Assembly: GCF_000767615.3 (NCBI RefSeq)
Contig: NZ_CP009553.3
Span: 5,325,286 to 5,389,285, forward strand
Length of the DNA stretch: 64,000 nucleotides
Reading direction: 5' to 3'
Source of the DNA: Pandoraea pnomenusa
GTDB taxonomy: Bacteria; Pseudomonadota; Gammaproteobacteria; Burkholderiales; Burkholderiaceae
The translations under genes were made by a program, and so were the position numbers. Numbering within the stretch: the first letter of the stretch is position 1; each line of letters opens with the position of its first letter. Below, piece by piece: positions 53,073 to 58,302 of the stretch. The notes beneath the pieces are model-generated. The model was not told the DNA's origin. It worked only from the letters and a program-made list of their open reading frames with translations, and searched no databases.

Positions 53073-54425
53073 TTATGGACGAACAGTCGATACAAATCCG
53101 GAGCAATGCAACTCATGTTCAATGAAGTTCTTCGGCGTCTTCACGTCAGAAATGGTGTACCTACTCCTCATATTGGTTTCGCCAAGCGAGGACAATTCAT
53201 CACGCAGCAGTTGTTCGCCATTCAGTTTCACTATCTCTCCCCAAGCTTTTTTAAAACTGATGTTCGCTCCGACCGGAACTTCGTCACTATCCGACAAGTA
53301 TTTCAGCAATTGAAGATCCGCGTAAGTTAAATTCTCATGCGCCAAAGAACTCATTTTTTCTTTCCATTGATACAAAGACAAGGGCGGCTCCTTTCCGAAC
53401 CCGCGAAGCAAAAGCTGCCGATCTTCGCCCATACTCTTACCAATGCAAATCAAATTATGCGAGTTCATTGAGGATGCAGGATGAAATGCAGATGCATTGA
53501 CGCTGCGAATAAACAGGATATCGCCTTTCGTTAGCTCCTCCACGGCGCGCGCCTCGGTTTTCATACCAAAATCCTCCAATAATTTCAGCATTCCATCCGG
53601 GCCTAGCGACAACCTGCCCCCATATTTATTTGACACCAGCTTATTAAACTCCACATTACCAAGCTCATCCTTTATGGAAAGTGCGATGCACAAATGGACG
53701 AACAACCTGCAATCCAGCAGGAACGGCGTGTTGACGATAAGTTTCTCCAGCGCGCCACAACAATCGTCGCCTTGGTACGTATACTCCTTTCTTTTGTGAA
53801 CGATATCAAAGCTCATCCCAGCGATACTCTTGCCAATCTCCGTCCGATACCACCCCTCCAGAGCTCCTTTCTCCTGCCCGAACTTTTCTGCGGTACCGGT
53901 ATTACGTCCATTGCTGAATGCACTATAGAACTCCGCCTCGTACAGAAGGTTACTTCTTTTATTCAATTCGTCGAGACGACGAACCACGCCATTTGAAAAT
54001 CTTTTGATTTTATTAGATTCATTGCTGACCACATTAGTTTTACAACGAATCTCCAACCCCGGAAATTCATCAACAATGGCCTTCTCGATATAAGCTGCCC
54101 TCGGCAATGAATCGTTGTTAAAACTATGAAACTTGATATTTACTGATTTGCAATCCTTATTATTCGCCAGGAAGGCCTGAATATTGTCGATCAGAATTTT
54201 CGCAACCCTTGGAGATTCCACGTTAGGACCAATACTCAACGAGTAAAAACCAGGATTCATCCTGCGCGAATCAGTTCGCTGAAGACGATCCTTCTCCGAA
54301 GAGTCACCATTATTGAAGTAAAGGTTGGCCGTGTTGGTACAAGGCGTGAGAGAGTCTTTTTTGTTCGGATCCTGCTTTTTGTATACGGATCTGTGGCCAG
54401 CGACGTTTTTCTGTGCGGATATCAT
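53073..54425 (-). CDS. Unrecognised 450-residue protein with a possible papain-like Cys/His site
   Basis: Encodes 450 residues in AT-rich sequence with Asn-, Lys- and Ser-rich codon use unlike its neighbours, which suggests transfer. There is no signal peptide. The first half is charged and partly disordered. The second half has FLLDCRLFVHLCIALS (Cys239), then TKGDILFIRSVN and MNSHNLICIGK (His323). The order Cys in a helix, GD-hydrophobic strand, His on the next strand resembles papain-fold transglutaminase/NlpC enzymes, including several secreted effectors. This is pattern inference only. It is flanked by IS remnants. Confidence 0.55.
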   Translation of the reverse strand: MISAQKNVAGHRSVYKKQDPNKKDSLTPCTNTANLYFNNGDSSEKDRLQRTDSRRMNPGFYSLSIGPNVESPRVAKILIDNIQAFLANNKDCKSVNIKFHSFNNDSLPRAAYIEKAIVDEFPGLEIRCKTNVVSNESNKIKRFSNGVVRRLDELNKRSNLLYEAEFYSAFSNGRNTGTAEKFGQEKGALEGWYRTEIGKSIAGMSFDIVHKRKEYTYQGDDCCGALEKLIVNTPFLLDCRLFVHLCIALSIKDELGNVEFNKLVSNKYGGRLSLGPDGMLKLLEDFGMKTEARAVEELTKGDILFIRSVNASAFHPASSMNSHNLICIGKSMGEDRQLLLRGFGKEPPLSLYQWKEKMSSLAHENLTYADLQLLKYLSDSDEVPVGANISFKKAWGEIVKLNGEQLLRDELSSLGETNMRSRYTISDVKTPKNFIEHELHCSGFVSTVRP

Positions 54426-54747: not shown

Positions 54748-55188
54748 GTCGGCATCTCCGAGCACCGCGCCTGCCGGCTGCTCGGGCGTTCTCGCAGCGT
54801 TCTGCATTAGGACACGAGGCCAGACCACGAGAATGAGGTGCTAGCGGTGTGTCTGGTGGAGTTGGCGCACGGACGTCGTCAATTTGACTACTGCACGCTC
54901 TGGCGGAGCGCAAAGGTACAACACGCCAATCGCAAGCGCATCTACCGCCTGTACCGTGAAGCGAGGCTGGCTGTGCGGCGCCGTCGCAGGCGCCACGGCG
55001 AAATGATTGATCGCCGGCAACCCGCATTGCCGGGCGCAGCCAACGAGGCAGCGCAGAATGCGTACGCTGAATCGTTCAACGGCAAGTCTCGCGACGAATG
55101 CCCTGGCAAGCACTGGTTCACGGCGCTCGCGCAGGCTCGGGCTGTCGTCGTGGCATGGCGTACTGCTGAAGCGCCTGCAATAACTTAA
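54748..55188 (+). pseudogene. Degenerate IS3-family transposase (orfB) remnant
   Basis: The plus strand reads VGISEHRACRLLGRSRS, an in-frame stop, then VELAHGRRQFDYCTLWRSA, NRKRIYRLYREARLAVRRRR and ALPGAANE. It then jumps to NAYAESFNGKSRDECPGKHW and ALAQARAVVVAW. These are the orfB blocks of an IS3-family transposase, with an internal deletion removing the first catalytic Asp region and at least one stop. It is a dead remnant, distinct from the intact-looking element at about 57.1-58.2 kb. Confidence 0.85.
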
Positions 55189-55231: not shown

Positions 55232-55521
55232 CTACAAGCAGTGATTATCCATTGAATAGTTAGTGTTCCTATACAAATTAACGACTAAATTCGGAACCAT
55301 CCCATATCCATTTTTTCCCGGTGCGACTAGATTCTGAAGGTCAAATTCTTCAAGTATCGAGCCTTCCGTGCCAACCGTAAGCCGCGCGATATCGCTCCTA
55401 ATGTTCACCATCCGACGAACGACTCCGACGCCCAGGTATGTTGGACGTCACCGTCAAGTCCGTCTCCCTCCAGCTCTGCAAATTTTCGGGGATCGGTGAA
55501 TGGGAGACTCCTCGTCCACAT
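55232..55521 (-). pseudogene. Frameshifted remnant or coupled small ORF pair
   Basis: On the minus strand a 38-codon frame starts at 55519-55521 (MWTRSLPFTDPRKFAE, ending WASESFVGW). It stops in TGA overlapping the ATG of a second, 59-codon frame at 55409-55411 (MVNIRSDIARLTVGTEGSI, then NLVAPGKNGYGMVPNLVV). Both read like protein. They most likely derive from one gene by a one-base frameshift. Alternatively they are two coupled peptides. I do not recognise the family. The 5' end overlaps the divergent kinase-like ORF by 22 bases. Confidence 0.4.
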
Positions 55522-55922
55522 TGCCTGTCTGTGTCGAGACAACGGAGCGTGATTTGACGGAAGCGCACCTCCTGTTCACCATCCGCGAAAAACTCCCATC
55601 GCTCTGCAGGCTAAGGCTTGAAGAAATTTGCGGTGGCGCGGAAGCCGGGACCGTCGTAAAGGTCGATGCACATTGCAGCGTGGTGGTAAAGGCAATCCGT
55701 TCCCGCCTTGCGGCAGAAGAAGTTGCTCATATAAGGCGAATGAACGCCGCGATCCCCGGCACTTGTCCCCCCGTCGTCTATTTCGAGGCAGACAGGGGCA
55801 TCTACGCTACTGAATTCGCTTCGGGAGAAACGCTGGAGCGGCAATTACGCGATTCGGTGATCGACGTCATGGGTTCGGTTTGCGCCGAGCCTGAAAGGCT
55901 CAACTCAGCCTTGCATTTATGA
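55500..55922 (+). CDS. Kinase N-lobe-like fragment
   Basis: Encodes 140 residues. The pattern fits the N-terminal lobe of an APH-like or protein kinase: a strand with VVVKAIRS (Lys64), a helix with AAEEVAHIRRMN (Glu73/74) and a hinge-like strand IYATEFASGETLERQL. The catalytic loop and metal-binding Asp motifs are absent, because the frame ends at 55922. It is either a truncated gene or a small regulator. A GGGGAT box lies 8 bases before the ATG. Assignment is by pattern only. Confidence 0.4.
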   Translation: MGDSSSTLPVCVETTERDLTEAHLLFTIREKLPSLCRLRLEEICGGAEAGTVVKVDAHCSVVVKAIRSRLAAEEVAHIRRMNAAIPGTCPPVVYFEADRGIYATEFASGETLERQLRDSVIDVMGSVCAEPERLNSALHL

Positions 55923-55930
55923 GCGATATG

Positions 55931-55949
55931 GTTAATGATAATCATTTGT
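55931..55949. promoter_or_regulatory. Fur box upstream of the truncated cupin gene
   Basis: GTTAATGATAATCATTTGT matches 15 of 19 positions of the GATAATGATAATCATTATC consensus, including the whole central AATGATAATCATT. It lies about 48 bases before the start at 55997. Iron-dependent repression of the genes downstream is inferred. Confidence 0.7.
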
Positions 55950-55996
55950 ATTTTCATTAATTTTTTCACAACGTAAGCGCGACATGGAGTTTTGTC

Positions 55997-56350
55997 ATGC
56001 CACTTCAACTAGGGCTCTCGCGAGAGGCTTTTTATTCGGATTATTTCGAGAAGATGCCATGCCATCTAACAAACGTTGTATCCGGTGATGATTTTTCATG
56101 GCGTGCACTGAGCCAGACGATTTATGGTCTGAATTTCGAGAGCGACACGGATGTCAAGGTTCATCTTGATGGTGTGCTCAAGCTGGCCCAATACACCGAA
56201 CGATATCAGGACATTTCCGATATCAAGGTTAGGTTATCCAAAGAGCGTCTGGAGTCTCTTCTCCGGGACGGCGCAACGCTCGTTGTAAATCGCCTGGATT
56301 TGAAAAACACCGCAATTGCGGCCCTGTGTAAGGCGTTATTCTTGGAATAG
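55997..56350 (+). CDS. Truncated JmjC/cupin-type oxygenase (N-terminal part)
   Basis: Encodes 117 residues with GGAG about 7 bases before the ATG. The N-terminus AFYSDYFEKMPCHLTN and the later LESLLRDGATLVVNRLD then IAALCKAL match the start of bacterial JmjC-type cupin hydroxylases (as in YcfD/ROX proteins). The reading frame stops before the jelly-roll HxD...H Fe(II) site, so the protein cannot be an active oxygenase. A Fur box lies just upstream. It is probably a gene remnant; the sequence beyond the stop does not resume the family pattern. Confidence 0.55.
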   Translation: MPLQLGLSREAFYSDYFEKMPCHLTNVVSGDDFSWRALSQTIYGLNFESDTDVKVHLDGVLKLAQYTERYQDISDIKVRLSKERLESLLRDGATLVVNRLDLKNTAIAALCKALFLE

Positions 56351-56423
56351 CGGCACATTCCTAACCTGCTTTCTGATCGGCAATGGTTTCGGCATAACGG
56401 CCGGCATCCTGTCGGAGAGTCCA

Positions 56424-56522
56424 ATGGTGGGGGTACTGACCCAGCGAATGGTCCAGATGGGGTGTAAGTACGTAATGGACAATATCAATACGCCTCAAAC
56501 AAATGATGACGGGGATGGTTGA
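56424..56522 (+). CDS. Possible 32-residue peptide with acidic tail
   Basis: An ATG at 56424 with GGAG 7 bases upstream opens a 32-codon frame: MVGVLTQRMVQMGCKYVMDN, then an acidic end TNDDGDG. The frame is open upstream to 56316 (FLIGNGFGITAGILSES) with overlap of the cupin gene. It lies between the cupin remnant and a small membrane protein. A peptide product or precursor is possible, but the evidence is only the ribosome site and the location. Confidence 0.3.
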   Translation: MVGVLTQRMVQMGCKYVMDNINTPQTNDDGDG

Positions 56523-56550
56523 ACGAAAACGATTACGTTAAGGAGTCTTG

Positions 56551-56934
56551 ATGAAAAAATATCGACATAGACTGGCGTGGTACTTCGCGGTTTTTATCAT
56601 AAACCTTGGGATTTTATTCTCCGGTAGCAAGTTACTGTTTTCGGCATCCTCTTCGGCACTTTTGTACTATTTGCCGACGTCTGTATTTTGGCTGTTCGCC
56701 GGGCCGTGGTTGTTTGGGCGCCGATTTCGATCGAGTTCGGTGTTTGGCATTAAAGTAGAACGATTTGGGTTTTGGATTATCGGTATCGCTACTTTCGGCA
56801 CCGTGATCTTTCTGCTCCAGGGTAACGACAAGCTTGCGGCCATCGCAATCTTCGCTGCCATGTGCGGTGTCGAGGATGTGATTTGGTCCAGGGAGGGTCG
56901 GTGTTCCGCCGACCAGCCGGGATTCCAGTCCTAA
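56551..56934 (+). CDS. Small multi-pass membrane protein (immunity-like size)
   Basis: Encodes 127 residues from the ATG at 56551, which has AGGAG 5 bases upstream. There are three to four membrane segments (WYFAVFIINLGILFSG, LPTSVFWLFAGPWLFG, FWIIGIATFGTVIFLL and a fourth, IAIFAAMCG). The short loops are basic. No family is recognised. Its place between a peptide-sized ORF and an HlyD-type fragment is that of an immunity or export accessory protein; this is inference. Confidence 0.5.
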   Translation: MKKYRHRLAWYFAVFIINLGILFSGSKLLFSASSSALLYYLPTSVFWLFAGPWLFGRRFRSSSVFGIKVERFGFWIIGIATFGTVIFLLQGNDKLAAIAIFAAMCGVEDVIWSREGRCSADQPGFQS

Positions 56935-57014
56935 ACAATAAAAAGTATTGGGGATGCCCTCTGCTTCGAGCCTCGCAGTGATGACGAGCGTGAGGCAGGG
57001 GGTGCCGAACAAAA

Positions 57015-57150
57015 ATGAGCTACGTTGACCCCGCGAAGTCGAAGTTGTTTCGTCAGGAAGCATTGGATGCCCGTCGAGATCGCTTCCAAGGCAGTGTGTT
57101 ACTGACCTTTCCCATTTCCAGTTGGCTGATCAACGCCAGCTGTGGGGACG
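57015..57150 (+). pseudogene. 5' fragment of an HlyD-type secretion adaptor, cut by an IS
   Basis: The frame begins MSYVDPAKSKLFRQEALDAR and continues RDRFQGSVLLTFPISSWLI. This resembles the cytoplasmic start and membrane anchor of HlyD/CvaA-type adaptors of type I peptide exporters. It then runs into unrelated sequence and the end of the IS3-family element. The exact IS boundary was not resolved (between about 57100 and 57170). The rest of the adaptor and the ABC exporter are not in the window. Confidence 0.55.
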
Positions 57151-57171
57151 ATGATGGTTGTAGTCGTGCTG

Positions 57172-57876
57172 TCAAGCCGTCATTTTTTCTCGGAGGTCGT
57201 ATAGCGTGACGAATTCATGCACGTTAAGGAATTCATCACGCAATCGACCATTGAAAGACTCGATCAGTCCATTATCGGTCGGCTTACCGGGGCGTGTGTA
57301 GTCGAGTTTCACCCCACGCCGGTATGCCCAGTCGTCTAGAGCGCGGGAGGTGAACTCGGTGCCGTTGTCCACGGTGATGGATTCGGGCCATCCACGAAGG
57401 AGCGCAGAACGATCCAGTGCTTGGCCAACCGCACGGCCGGTCTGTCGAAAGTTGGCCTCCAGACAGACACTCTCGCGACTCCATTGATCGATGACGGTCA
57501 GAATGCGAAAGCGGCGCCCATCAAGCATCTGATCATGAACGAAGTCCATGCTCCAGTGCTGATTCGGCCCAGTGGGCACCGGCGGCTTGCCTCGCAGCAG
57601 GGCGATGCGTTTGCGGCGCTTGACCTTCATCCGCAACTGCAACCCCTCCAGGCTGTAGAGCCGATAGACGCGCTTCTTGCCCACGTCCCAGCCCTCGCGA
57701 TGCAGCATCACCAACACTCGCCGGTAGCCGAACCGCGGGCGACTTAAGGCGATGTCCCGGATGCGTTGGCGCAGCGCCCTTTGATCTCGCGCATGACTCT
57801 TCGCGTACCAAGTCGAACGCTGTAGCAACGCCAGCGCGCAGGAACGTTGCACGCTGATCTGAAAGCGCTCTTGCAT
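57172..57876 (-). CDS. IS3-family transposase OrfB (DDE integrase)
   Basis: Encodes 234 residues from the first ATG; with the frameshift it extends into orfA. The DDE catalytic residues are visible in HWSMDFVHDQM, ITVDNGTEFTS and GLIESFNGRLRDEF. The RPRFGYRRVLVMLHREGW block is typical of the family. The protein ends KMTA shortly after, slightly short, so the very C-terminus may be altered. Confidence 0.9.
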   Translation of the reverse strand: MQERFQISVQRSCALALLQRSTWYAKSHARDQRALRQRIRDIALSRPRFGYRRVLVMLHREGWDVGKKRVYRLYSLEGLQLRMKVKRRKRIALLRGKPPVPTGPNQHWSMDFVHDQMLDGRRFRILTVIDQWSRESVCLEANFRQTGRAVGQALDRSALLRGWPESITVDNGTEFTSRALDDWAYRRGVKLDYTRPGKPTDNGLIESFNGRLRDEFLNVHEFVTLYDLREKMTA

Positions 57877-57908: not shown

Positions 57909-58175
57909 TCAGACTTTTTTTCGCACCACCTCTTGCAGGATCTGCTTATCCAGCGTCAGGTCGGCGACGATACGCCGCAGGCGTGCGTTCTCGTCTTCGA
58001 GCTGCTTGAGCTTGCGCAGCTCGCTTACGCCGAAGTCGGCGTACTTCTTCTTCCATGTGTAGAAAGTTGCCTCCGACACGCCAAGCTGCCGACAAACGTC
58101 GACCACCGGCGTGCCGCTCTCGGCTAATCGCAATGCATAGGCGATCTGCTCTTCGGTAAATCTCGAGCGTTTCAT
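57909..58175 (-). CDS. IS3-family transposase OrfA (DNA-binding)
   Basis: Encodes 88 residues: an N-terminal helix-turn-helix (EEQIAYALRLAESGTPVVDV then LGVSEATFYTWKKKY) and a C-terminal leucine-zipper-like helix (LRKLKQLEDENARLRRIVAD). The gene ends in an A7G run where -1 slippage would produce the OrfAB transposase. Confidence 0.92.
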   Translation of the reverse strand: MKRSRFTEEQIAYALRLAESGTPVVDVCRQLGVSEATFYTWKKKYADFGVSELRKLKQLEDENARLRRIVADLTLDKQILQEVVRKKV

Positions 58176-58270: not shown

Positions 58271-58302
58271 CAAAAAGAGGGCCTTGAAATTCAAGGCCCT
58301 CT
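58271..58302 (-). terminator. Rho-independent terminator of gyrB
   Basis: AGAGGGCCTTGAA and TTCAAGGCCCTCT form a perfect 13-bp stem, followed on the minus strand by TTTTTG. It lies about 165 bases after the gyrB stop, beyond the imperfect inverted repeat at 58332-58386. Confidence 0.9.

What the first reader, a model, noticed from the sequence alone, without database searches (positions are those of the whole stretch)
55232..57170. Eroded, Fur-controlled peptide-export (microcin/RiPP-like) locus cut by an IS3 element
Seen: a strong Fur box (55931-55949) precedes a cluster of small or truncated genes in AT-rich sequence. In order on the plus strand these are a kinase N-lobe-like fragment, a JmjC-type cupin fragment lacking its Fe site, a 32-codon peptide ORF, a 127-residue 3-4 TM protein and the first ~40 residues of an HlyD-type adaptor. 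An IS3-family element interrupts the last. Known: class II microcins are iron-regulated, exported by HlyD/ABC pairs and paired with small membrane immunity proteins. JmjC/cupin enzymes and APH-like kinases occur in peptide-modification clusters. Inference: the left part of a peptide antibiotic locus, now broken. No double-glycine leader was found, so the peptide itself is unproven.
Basis: partly seen in the sequence, partly recalled or inferred. Interest (0 to 1): 0.75.

Follow-up and report, generated by a model that had tools for sequence, protein, structure and literature searches.

The report
Broken iron-controlled microcin gene cluster
This stretch of a Pandoraea chromosome holds the wreck of a gene cluster for a small bacterial-warfare peptide (a microcin), and its intact relatives suggest that many such peptides share a short acidic tail that a companion oxygenase enzyme may modify.

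Summary
Pandoraea pneumonica has the intact locus: JmjC_2/cupin oxygenase, 110-aa precursor with a 15-aa GA leader, 127-aa membrane protein, HlyD, C39-peptidase ABC exporter, TolC-type protein. The window keeps the Fur box, about 113 JmjC codons, the last 61 precursor codons, an open membrane-protein gene and 39 HlyD codons. One deletion removed the JmjC 3' part and the precursor leader; a second break, with an IS3 element close by, ended HlyD. The kinase fragment is an unrelated truncated gene.

New here: JmjC-linked precursors in seven core groups without detectable similarity share a C-terminal DxDG-type tail. By a fixed rule 11 of 18 JmjC loci with a leader ORF have it, against 0 of 13 exporter loci without JmjC; a second JmjC clade goes with an (N/D)Y tail. 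Best reading: JmjC modifies the tail before export. The chemistry is untested, my later predictions failed more often than they held, and a published Acinetobacter experiment reads this enzyme as immunity. Cupin genes beside microcins are already in print; my searches found no report of the tail link.

The parts
55931..55949 (+). Fur box upstream of the JmjC remnant
   Evidence: 15/19 to consensus, best in window; same 15/19 site in P. anhela; not found in P. pneumonica (12/19)
55997..56336 (+). 5' third (about 113 codons) of a JmjC_2/cupin oxygenase gene; Fe-binding part deleted (the ORF runs on out of frame to 56350)
   Evidence: 54% identity to P. pneumonica JmjC; alignments and junction
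56337..56522 (+). 3' part (codons 50-110 plus stop) of the microcin precursor, ending NDDGDG; leader deleted
   Evidence: 94% identical to residues 45-110 of the P. anhela precursor; alignment; junction
56551..56934 (+). Open 127-aa membrane-protein gene, probable immunity protein
   Evidence: 98% to P. anhela, 68% to P. pneumonica; hydrophobic stretches; 6 synonymous and 3 non-synonymous differences to P. anhela
57015..57131 (+). First 39 codons of an HlyD-type adaptor
   Evidence: 97.7% DNA identity to P. anhela over 56321-57131; full HlyD in P. pneumonica, PF13437
57172..58175 (-). IS3-family element (orfB 57172-57876, orfA 57909-58175), one copy in this genome
   Evidence: NF033516, PF00665, PF01527; two other matches in G000 are under 100 bp at 70-75%; ends not resolved
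55500..55871 (+). 5' end of an unrelated APH-like kinase gene, cut where the microcin locus begins (not part of the system)
   Evidence: 85% to residues 1-125 of a 369-aa ORF in another Pandoraea genome; boundary 55868

Best explanation
The region is a decayed class II microcin-type locus of Pandoraea. In the intact form a precursor with a 15-aa GA leader is made, cleaved and exported by the C39-ABC/HlyD/TolC-type machinery, and the small membrane protein gives immunity (shown: gene content and order; inferred: functions). The JmjC_2 oxygenase of the same cluster modifies the C-terminal acidic DxDG tail of the precursor, most simply by hydroxylating one or more Asp residues in the cytoplasm before export, and the modified tail serves uptake through an iron-regulated receptor of the target cell (inferred). 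In the window the producer functions are lost by deletion and IS insertion and only the putative immunity gene stays open, so the strain is now at most an immune non-producer (inferred).
For: Intact operon in P. pneumonica. Of the 80 JmjC loci kept from the genome-contig scan, 12 carry a C39 ABC of 400 bits or more, one more is cut by a contig end. DxD tail: 11 of 18 JmjC loci with a leader ORF versus 0 of 13 control exporter loci; 16 of 26 versus 0 of 22 ORFs; Fisher p = 4e-4 and 4e-6; by genus, counted by hand, 6 of 10 versus 0 of 12, p = 0.003. Thirteen tailed precursors fall into seven groups by core similarity (9 of 78 pairs above z 4). In Acinetobacter precursors SEDGD is identical in 13 of 13 rows while cores average 64% and leaders 74%; 2 of 15 rows with scrambled ends were dropped, and the search profile itself carried the tail. 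The JmjC tree splits by tail type, and the motif around the first Fe ligands differs (HWDTHD versus HWDTRD or HWDSRD). P. anhela, the window and two further Pandoraea genomes keep the membrane-protein gene while other genes are broken or gone. Receptors of two published cupin-bearing microcins are Fiu/PiuA and CirA (PMC10333792, PMC8853679, passages).
Against: No chemistry is shown. The tail rule was derived from the same loci on which it is counted. After I wrote down the prediction of a DG motif it was met in 2 loci (L189, L040) and not met in 4 (L190, L191, L192, L046). L050 and L052 have JmjC, HlyD and C39 ABC but no ordinary leader peptide was seen. Metagenome precursors P0004-P0006 keep the tail but have lost a recognisable GA site. 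Two unlinked enzymes (L032, L034) sit inside the DxDG clade. In A. baumannii, plasmid-borne mcaB (the cupin) alone protected a sensitive strain and is read there as immunity (PMC10333792, section 25). P. pneumonica shows no Fur box. The selection argument for the membrane-protein gene rests on only 9 differences.
Confidence: 0.58

Rival explanations
1. The JmjC/cupin protein is the immunity protein, not a maturation enzyme; the tail may be what it recognises or modifies on incoming peptide.
For: pmcaB alone protected A. baumannii delta-mcc from the microcin (PMC10333792, section 25). In Acinetobacter venetianus the gaps precursor-JmjC and JmjC-HlyD are only 267 and 108 bp, so no further sizeable gene lies between them.
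Against: In Pandoraea a separate membrane protein lies 27-28 bp after the precursor. It is open in all five genomes with traces of the locus, and relatives of it (down to 27% identity) occur in 8 of 32 genus genomes against 3 of 32 for JmjC at E 1e-20; no leader ORF was seen beside the four most distant copies, so their role is open. Mcc1229 has a cupin (mctC) yet immunity maps to mctDE (PMC8853679, passages). A cytoplasmic enzyme that inactivates the peptide would spoil the product before export (inference).
Confidence: 0.22
2. The tail is a signal for the exporter or receptor and the JmjC enzyme acts on something else, such as a ribosomal protein in the manner of YcfD.
For: Best PDB matches are NO66, MINA and YcfD, which hydroxylate ribosomal proteins (recalled; the record titles say histidyl-hydroxylase and L16 arginine hydroxylase).
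Against: C39 exporters at 43-57% identity without JmjC go with leader peptides that lack such a tail, so this exporter type does not require it; the enzyme clade follows tail type.
Confidence: 0.14
3. The whole region including the kinase is one RiPP-like cluster with several modifying enzymes.
For: Neighbouring position in the window.
Against: The kinase fragment ends where homology to P. anhela's microcin locus begins, and its full-length relative in another Pandoraea genome (C1:219251) is far from that genome's two membrane-protein copies at 1560485 and 2852703.
Confidence: 0.02

Closest known systems
Mcc17978 locus mcaABCD of Acinetobacter baumannii ATCC 17978 (PMC10333792)
   Same: Microcin gene, cupin-like gene, HlyD, C39-type (SunT) exporter; Fur box; iron control; leader ending GA
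   Different: Precursor before cupin; no separate membrane immunity gene in the passages I saw; cupin interpreted as immunity. I did not see the Mcc17978 peptide sequence, so its tail is unknown to me
Mcc1229 mctABC of E. coli (PMC8853679)
   Same: Cupin-like gene (mctC), ABC transporter, Fur control, siderophore-type receptor CirA
   Different: Immunity by mctDE (DUF4440/DUF2164); the authors leave the cupin's role open and name modification as possible; peptide not examined here
Class IIb microcins (E492, H47, M and others, as defined in PMC11634061)
   Same: 15-aa leader ending GG/GA, membrane-protein ORF close by, special C-terminal tail, iron link
   Different: Their tail is serine-rich and carries a siderophore; here it is acidic DxDG and the enzyme is a JmjC oxygenase
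McbC of Moraxella catarrhalis pLQ510 (PMC2761928)
   Same: HlyD, C39 ABC, GG-leader peptide and immunity gene; a JmjC gene lies on the plasmid before HlyD
   Different: The JmjC gene is annotated as two ORFs and McbC has no DxDG tail
PF08007 JmjC_2 oxygenases (YcfD, NO66, MINA)
   Same: Domain family and H-x-D...H Fe site
   Different: Microcin-linked forms are encoded beside exported peptides; the 300-aa forms lack the C-terminal part of the 380-aa forms

Membership tests
Class II microcin locus | Precursor with double-glycine-type (GG/GA) leader of about 15 aa | tested here: met
   Met in P. pneumonica and P. anhela; in the window itself the leader is deleted
Class II microcin locus | Peptidase-C39 ABC exporter and HlyD adaptor | tested here: met
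   PF03412, PF00664, PF00005, PF13437 in P. pneumonica; the window keeps only 39 HlyD codons
Class II microcin locus | Small membrane (immunity) protein within 200 bp | tested here: met
   28 bp after the precursor remnant; hydrophobic stretches; immunity function itself not tested
Class II microcin locus | Fur/iron control | tested here: inconclusive
   15/19 box in window and P. anhela, 14/19 before HlyD of C. basilensis, none in P. pneumonica
Class II microcin locus | Antibacterial activity of the peptide | not testable with these tools
   No assay
Class IIb microcin | Serine-rich C-terminus ending in serine | tested here: not met
   Pandoraea precursors end DDGDG; criterion from PMC11634061
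Class IIb microcin | Fewer than two cysteines | tested here: not met
   C60 and C92 invariant in 7 of 7 precursors
Class IIa microcin | Disulphide, no other modification | not testable with these tools
   Two conserved Cys only
PF08007 JmjC_2 oxygenase | JmjC_2 domain above gathering score | tested here: met
   P. pneumonica 93 bits versus cut-off 22; the window fragment has no Pfam hit
PF08007 JmjC_2 oxygenase | Fe(II) ligands H-x-D...H | tested here: met
   44 of 44 rows that I chose from the fetched loci; deleted in the window copy
PF08007 JmjC_2 oxygenase | Hydroxylase activity on a protein substrate | not testable with these tools
   None

The most novel reading that the evidence does not exclude
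Across proteobacteria there is a class of microcins defined by a portable C-terminal DxDG tail that a dedicated JmjC oxygenase turns into beta-hydroxyaspartate, giving a genetically encoded iron-binding, siderophore-like head group that opens TonB-dependent iron receptors: a third route to Trojan-horse microcins besides unmodified (IIa) and siderophore-linked (IIb) forms. A sister enzyme clade does the same for (N/D)Y tails.
Probability: 0.22. Interest if true: 0.88.

Novelty: new variant of a known kind. Interest (0 to 1): 0.62.

Why it matters
Two published microcin systems carry a cupin gene whose role is disputed or open (immunity in one, possible modification in the other). The link between this enzyme family and a short C-terminal tail, shared by precursors with different cores, gives a direct and cheap test: look for a mass shift on the last five residues. 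If true it adds ribosomal-oxygenase-type enzymes to microcin maturation, gives a sequence tag for finding more such peptides, and could explain iron-receptor use without a siderophore pathway. The window itself shows how such loci die: producer genes go first, the putative immunity gene stays.

Tried and rejected
Kinase as a cluster member: rejected. The rest of HlyD/ABC right of the IS in the window: no such ORF in the list, next is gyrB-like sequence recognised by eye. IS ends and target duplication: not resolved; no second copy in the genome to define them.

Tail motif without JmjC: a DNA pattern for an acidic DGDG end gave matches in 130 of 398 family genomes; the pattern also lets TGG pass and the match list was cut. 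Of 30 loci fetched from it, 14 ORFs with a true stop were read and none has a leader by eye; the other loci gave no ORF with a true stop and start, and the unfetched matches were not read. Three more such ends in Pandoraea genomes also had no leader. A DDGDG end about 35 bp before the membrane-protein gene of G014 may be a precursor remnant or chance.

Prediction of a DG motif: 2 met (L189, L040), 4 not met (L190, L191, L192, L046); L040 and L046 had been fetched before but their leader ORFs were not seen until. Fixed leader rule: it misses the real precursors of L033, L189, L040, L046 and the true one of L191, and counts some spurious ORFs on both sides. The JmjC set (25 loci) was chosen by me: exporter-linked loci, two broken loci (L028, L065), L029, plus five loci with a leader ORF seen by eye (L189, L190, L191, L040, L046); duplicates L147, L188, L200 were dropped. 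The control set is 18 of the 20 best C39 places in 200 Burkholderiales genomes; the other 2 have JmjC. The (N/D)Y class was defined after seeing the data.

Literature, open-licence papers only: microcin+JmjC (3 papers, unrelated by title and abstract start), class II microcin+Acinetobacter (14, 13 listed), microcin+cupin (14, two relevant), microcin+hydroxyaspart (8, 7 listed), microcin+2-oxoglutarate (31, 15 listed), class II microcin+post-translational modification+hydroxylase (0), JmjC+bacteriocin (2), Moraxella catarrhalis+mcbC (3), Pandoraea+microcin (2), microcin/cupin-like/siderophore from 2023 (246, 15 listed): no report of the tail link in what was listed. Seen: PMC10333792 abstract, passages, sections 25 and 27; PMC8853679, PMC2761928, PMC11634061 passages only; all others as search listings.

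Full report
What is in the window. The window is the last 64 kb of a single-contig 5.39-Mb genome, beside ORFs that I recognise by eye as gyrB, dnaN and dnaA. G+C drops from about 0.64 to 0.47-0.53 between 53 and 57 kb. On the plus strand lie a Fur box, a JmjC fragment, a peptide fragment, a membrane-protein gene and an HlyD fragment, followed by an IS3 element on the minus strand.

The intact relative. A search of 61 genomes with the JmjC fragment found the window itself and 2 others. In P. pneumonica the order is JmjC_2 enzyme (301 aa), precursor (110 aa, leader MRPLTSDEISSVSGA), membrane protein (127 aa), HlyD (440 aa), C39 ABC exporter (726 aa), outer-membrane protein (499 aa).

How it broke. 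Window 55868-56079 and 56321-57131 match P. anhela at 94.3% and 97.7%; between them the two genomes hold different pieces. The window keeps JmjC codons about 29-113, which P. anhela lacks, and lacks the rest of JmjC and the precursor codons up to about 49, which P. anhela has. These look like two different deletions of one ancestral locus; the window junction is near 56336. HlyD homology ends at 57131; the IS ORFs start at 57172. P. anhela's HlyD is also truncated, running into acetyltransferase-like sequence. Genome G012 has a JmjC scrap, a precursor with an in-frame stop, and two membrane-protein genes; G014 has a membrane-protein gene of 36% identity and a DDGDG end about 35 bp before it that may be a remnant. 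In these five Pandoraea genomes the membrane-protein gene is open. Between window and P. anhela it shows 6 synonymous and 3 non-synonymous differences (dN 0.010, dS 0.070), compatible with selection to keep it but few in number.

Not part of it. The kinase-like ORF is the first 124 codons or so of a 369-aa APH-type gene of G012 (85% identity; HGDPHLGN motif, its meaning recalled), cut where microcin homology begins.

The wider system. A scan of the genome-contig collection with 14 JmjC relatives found 106 relatives, the best 80 kept. In 12 of these 80 a C39 ABC exporter of 400 bits or more lies in the fetched locus: P. pneumonica, two Acinetobacter, Cupriavidus, four Methylomonas, Achromobacter, Niveispirillum, Sphingomonas and Pseudomonas; in a 13th, Variovorax, it is cut by the contig end. 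Plasmids add A. baumannii pMC23.1 and Moraxella pLQ510.

The tail. Leader-bearing ORFs beside these enzymes end in DDGDG, EDGDG(S/E/N/G), EDGDE, NDGDGY, DADGDGY, NDADGQ, VDGDE, and, in a precursor interrupted by a stop, DDGDS. By one fixed rule applied to both sets, 11 of 18 JmjC loci with a leader ORF have a DxD tail and 4 an (N/D)Y tail (7 of 25 loci had no leader ORF by the rule); of 18 exporter loci without JmjC, 13 have leader ORFs and none has either tail. By genus, counted by hand, 6 of 10 versus 0 of 12. Thirteen tailed precursors fall into seven groups: only 9 of 78 core pairs score above z = 4 against 60 shuffles each; a low score does not prove different origin. In Acinetobacter the tail is the most conserved part of the peptide. 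In the JmjC tree 10 of 12 DxDG-linked enzymes share a clade (support 92) with L040, which also proved to have a DGD tail, and two unlinked ones (L032, L034); L033 and L189 are unresolved. The five (N/D)Y-linked enzymes plus L192 form another clade (96), and 13 unlinked enzymes a third (100) (short search, SH-aLRT only). The Fe ligands are present in 44 of 44 rows; the second clade has HWDTRD or HWDSRD except L055.

Results against. My written prediction of a DG motif failed in L190, L191 and L192, which belong to the second clade, and in L046; it held in L189 and L040. L050 and L052 have JmjC, HlyD and C39 ABC but no ordinary leader peptide was seen. Moraxella McbC lacks the tail, though there the JmjC gene is split. 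P. pneumonica has no Fur box by my scan. Three metagenome precursors keep the tail but lack a GA site. The published A. baumannii experiment assigns protection to the cupin gene.

Mechanism. Shown: gene content, linkage, tail correlation, decay. Inferred from family knowledge (recalled): JmjC_2 enzymes are Fe(II)/2-oxoglutarate oxygenases that hydroxylate protein side chains; best PDB matches are NO66, MINA and YcfD. The simplest reading is Asp hydroxylation in the tail before export. Beta-hydroxyaspartate is an iron ligand in several siderophores (recalled), which would fit Fur control and the published receptors Fiu, PiuA and CirA, but no result here tests it.

Known versus new. Microcin loci with a cupin gene are in print (PMC10333792, PMC8853679), so the cluster type is known. 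I found no paper that ties the cupin to a C-terminal tail, within the searches named in Tried and rejected. The Pandoraea peptide is not class IIb (no serine tail, two Cys) and its place in IIa is undecided.

Noticed in passing
window 53073-54425 (-): 450-aa protein with no convincing Pfam or NCBIfam match in the low-G+C patch; relatives at 42-44% identity in two other Pandoraea genomes (G007 twice, G018), so 3 of 32 genus genomes including its own.
   Followed up: partly
window 54838-55188 (+): Remnant of a second IS3-family transposase left of the kinase fragment, so the locus lies between two IS3-type sequences.
   Followed up: no
window 58276-58302: Perfect 13-nt inverted repeat with a 1-nt gap between the IS and the gyrB-like ORF, terminator-like.
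   Followed up: no
L140 39-1120 (Moraxella catarrhalis pLQ510): A JmjC_2-type gene annotated as two ORFs lies before the published mcbABCI bacteriocin genes; 'cupin' does not occur in the main text of that paper.
   Followed up: partly
L189 8001-9997 (G247): JmjC gene followed by a leader peptide ending NDADGQ and a CAAX-protease-like protein (PF02517); no C39 exporter within about 8 kb.
   Followed up: partly
L050 14658-15272 (Niveispirillum irakense): A GG-type leader sits on a 204-aa protein with an HSHP motif that looks like a metalloprotease by eye, beside JmjC, HlyD and C39 ABC.
   Followed up: no
P0004-P0006 (metagenome precursors): Precursors that keep core and DDGDS tail but whose leader has lost the GA site (TSGV, ASDV, TPDV).
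   Followed up: no
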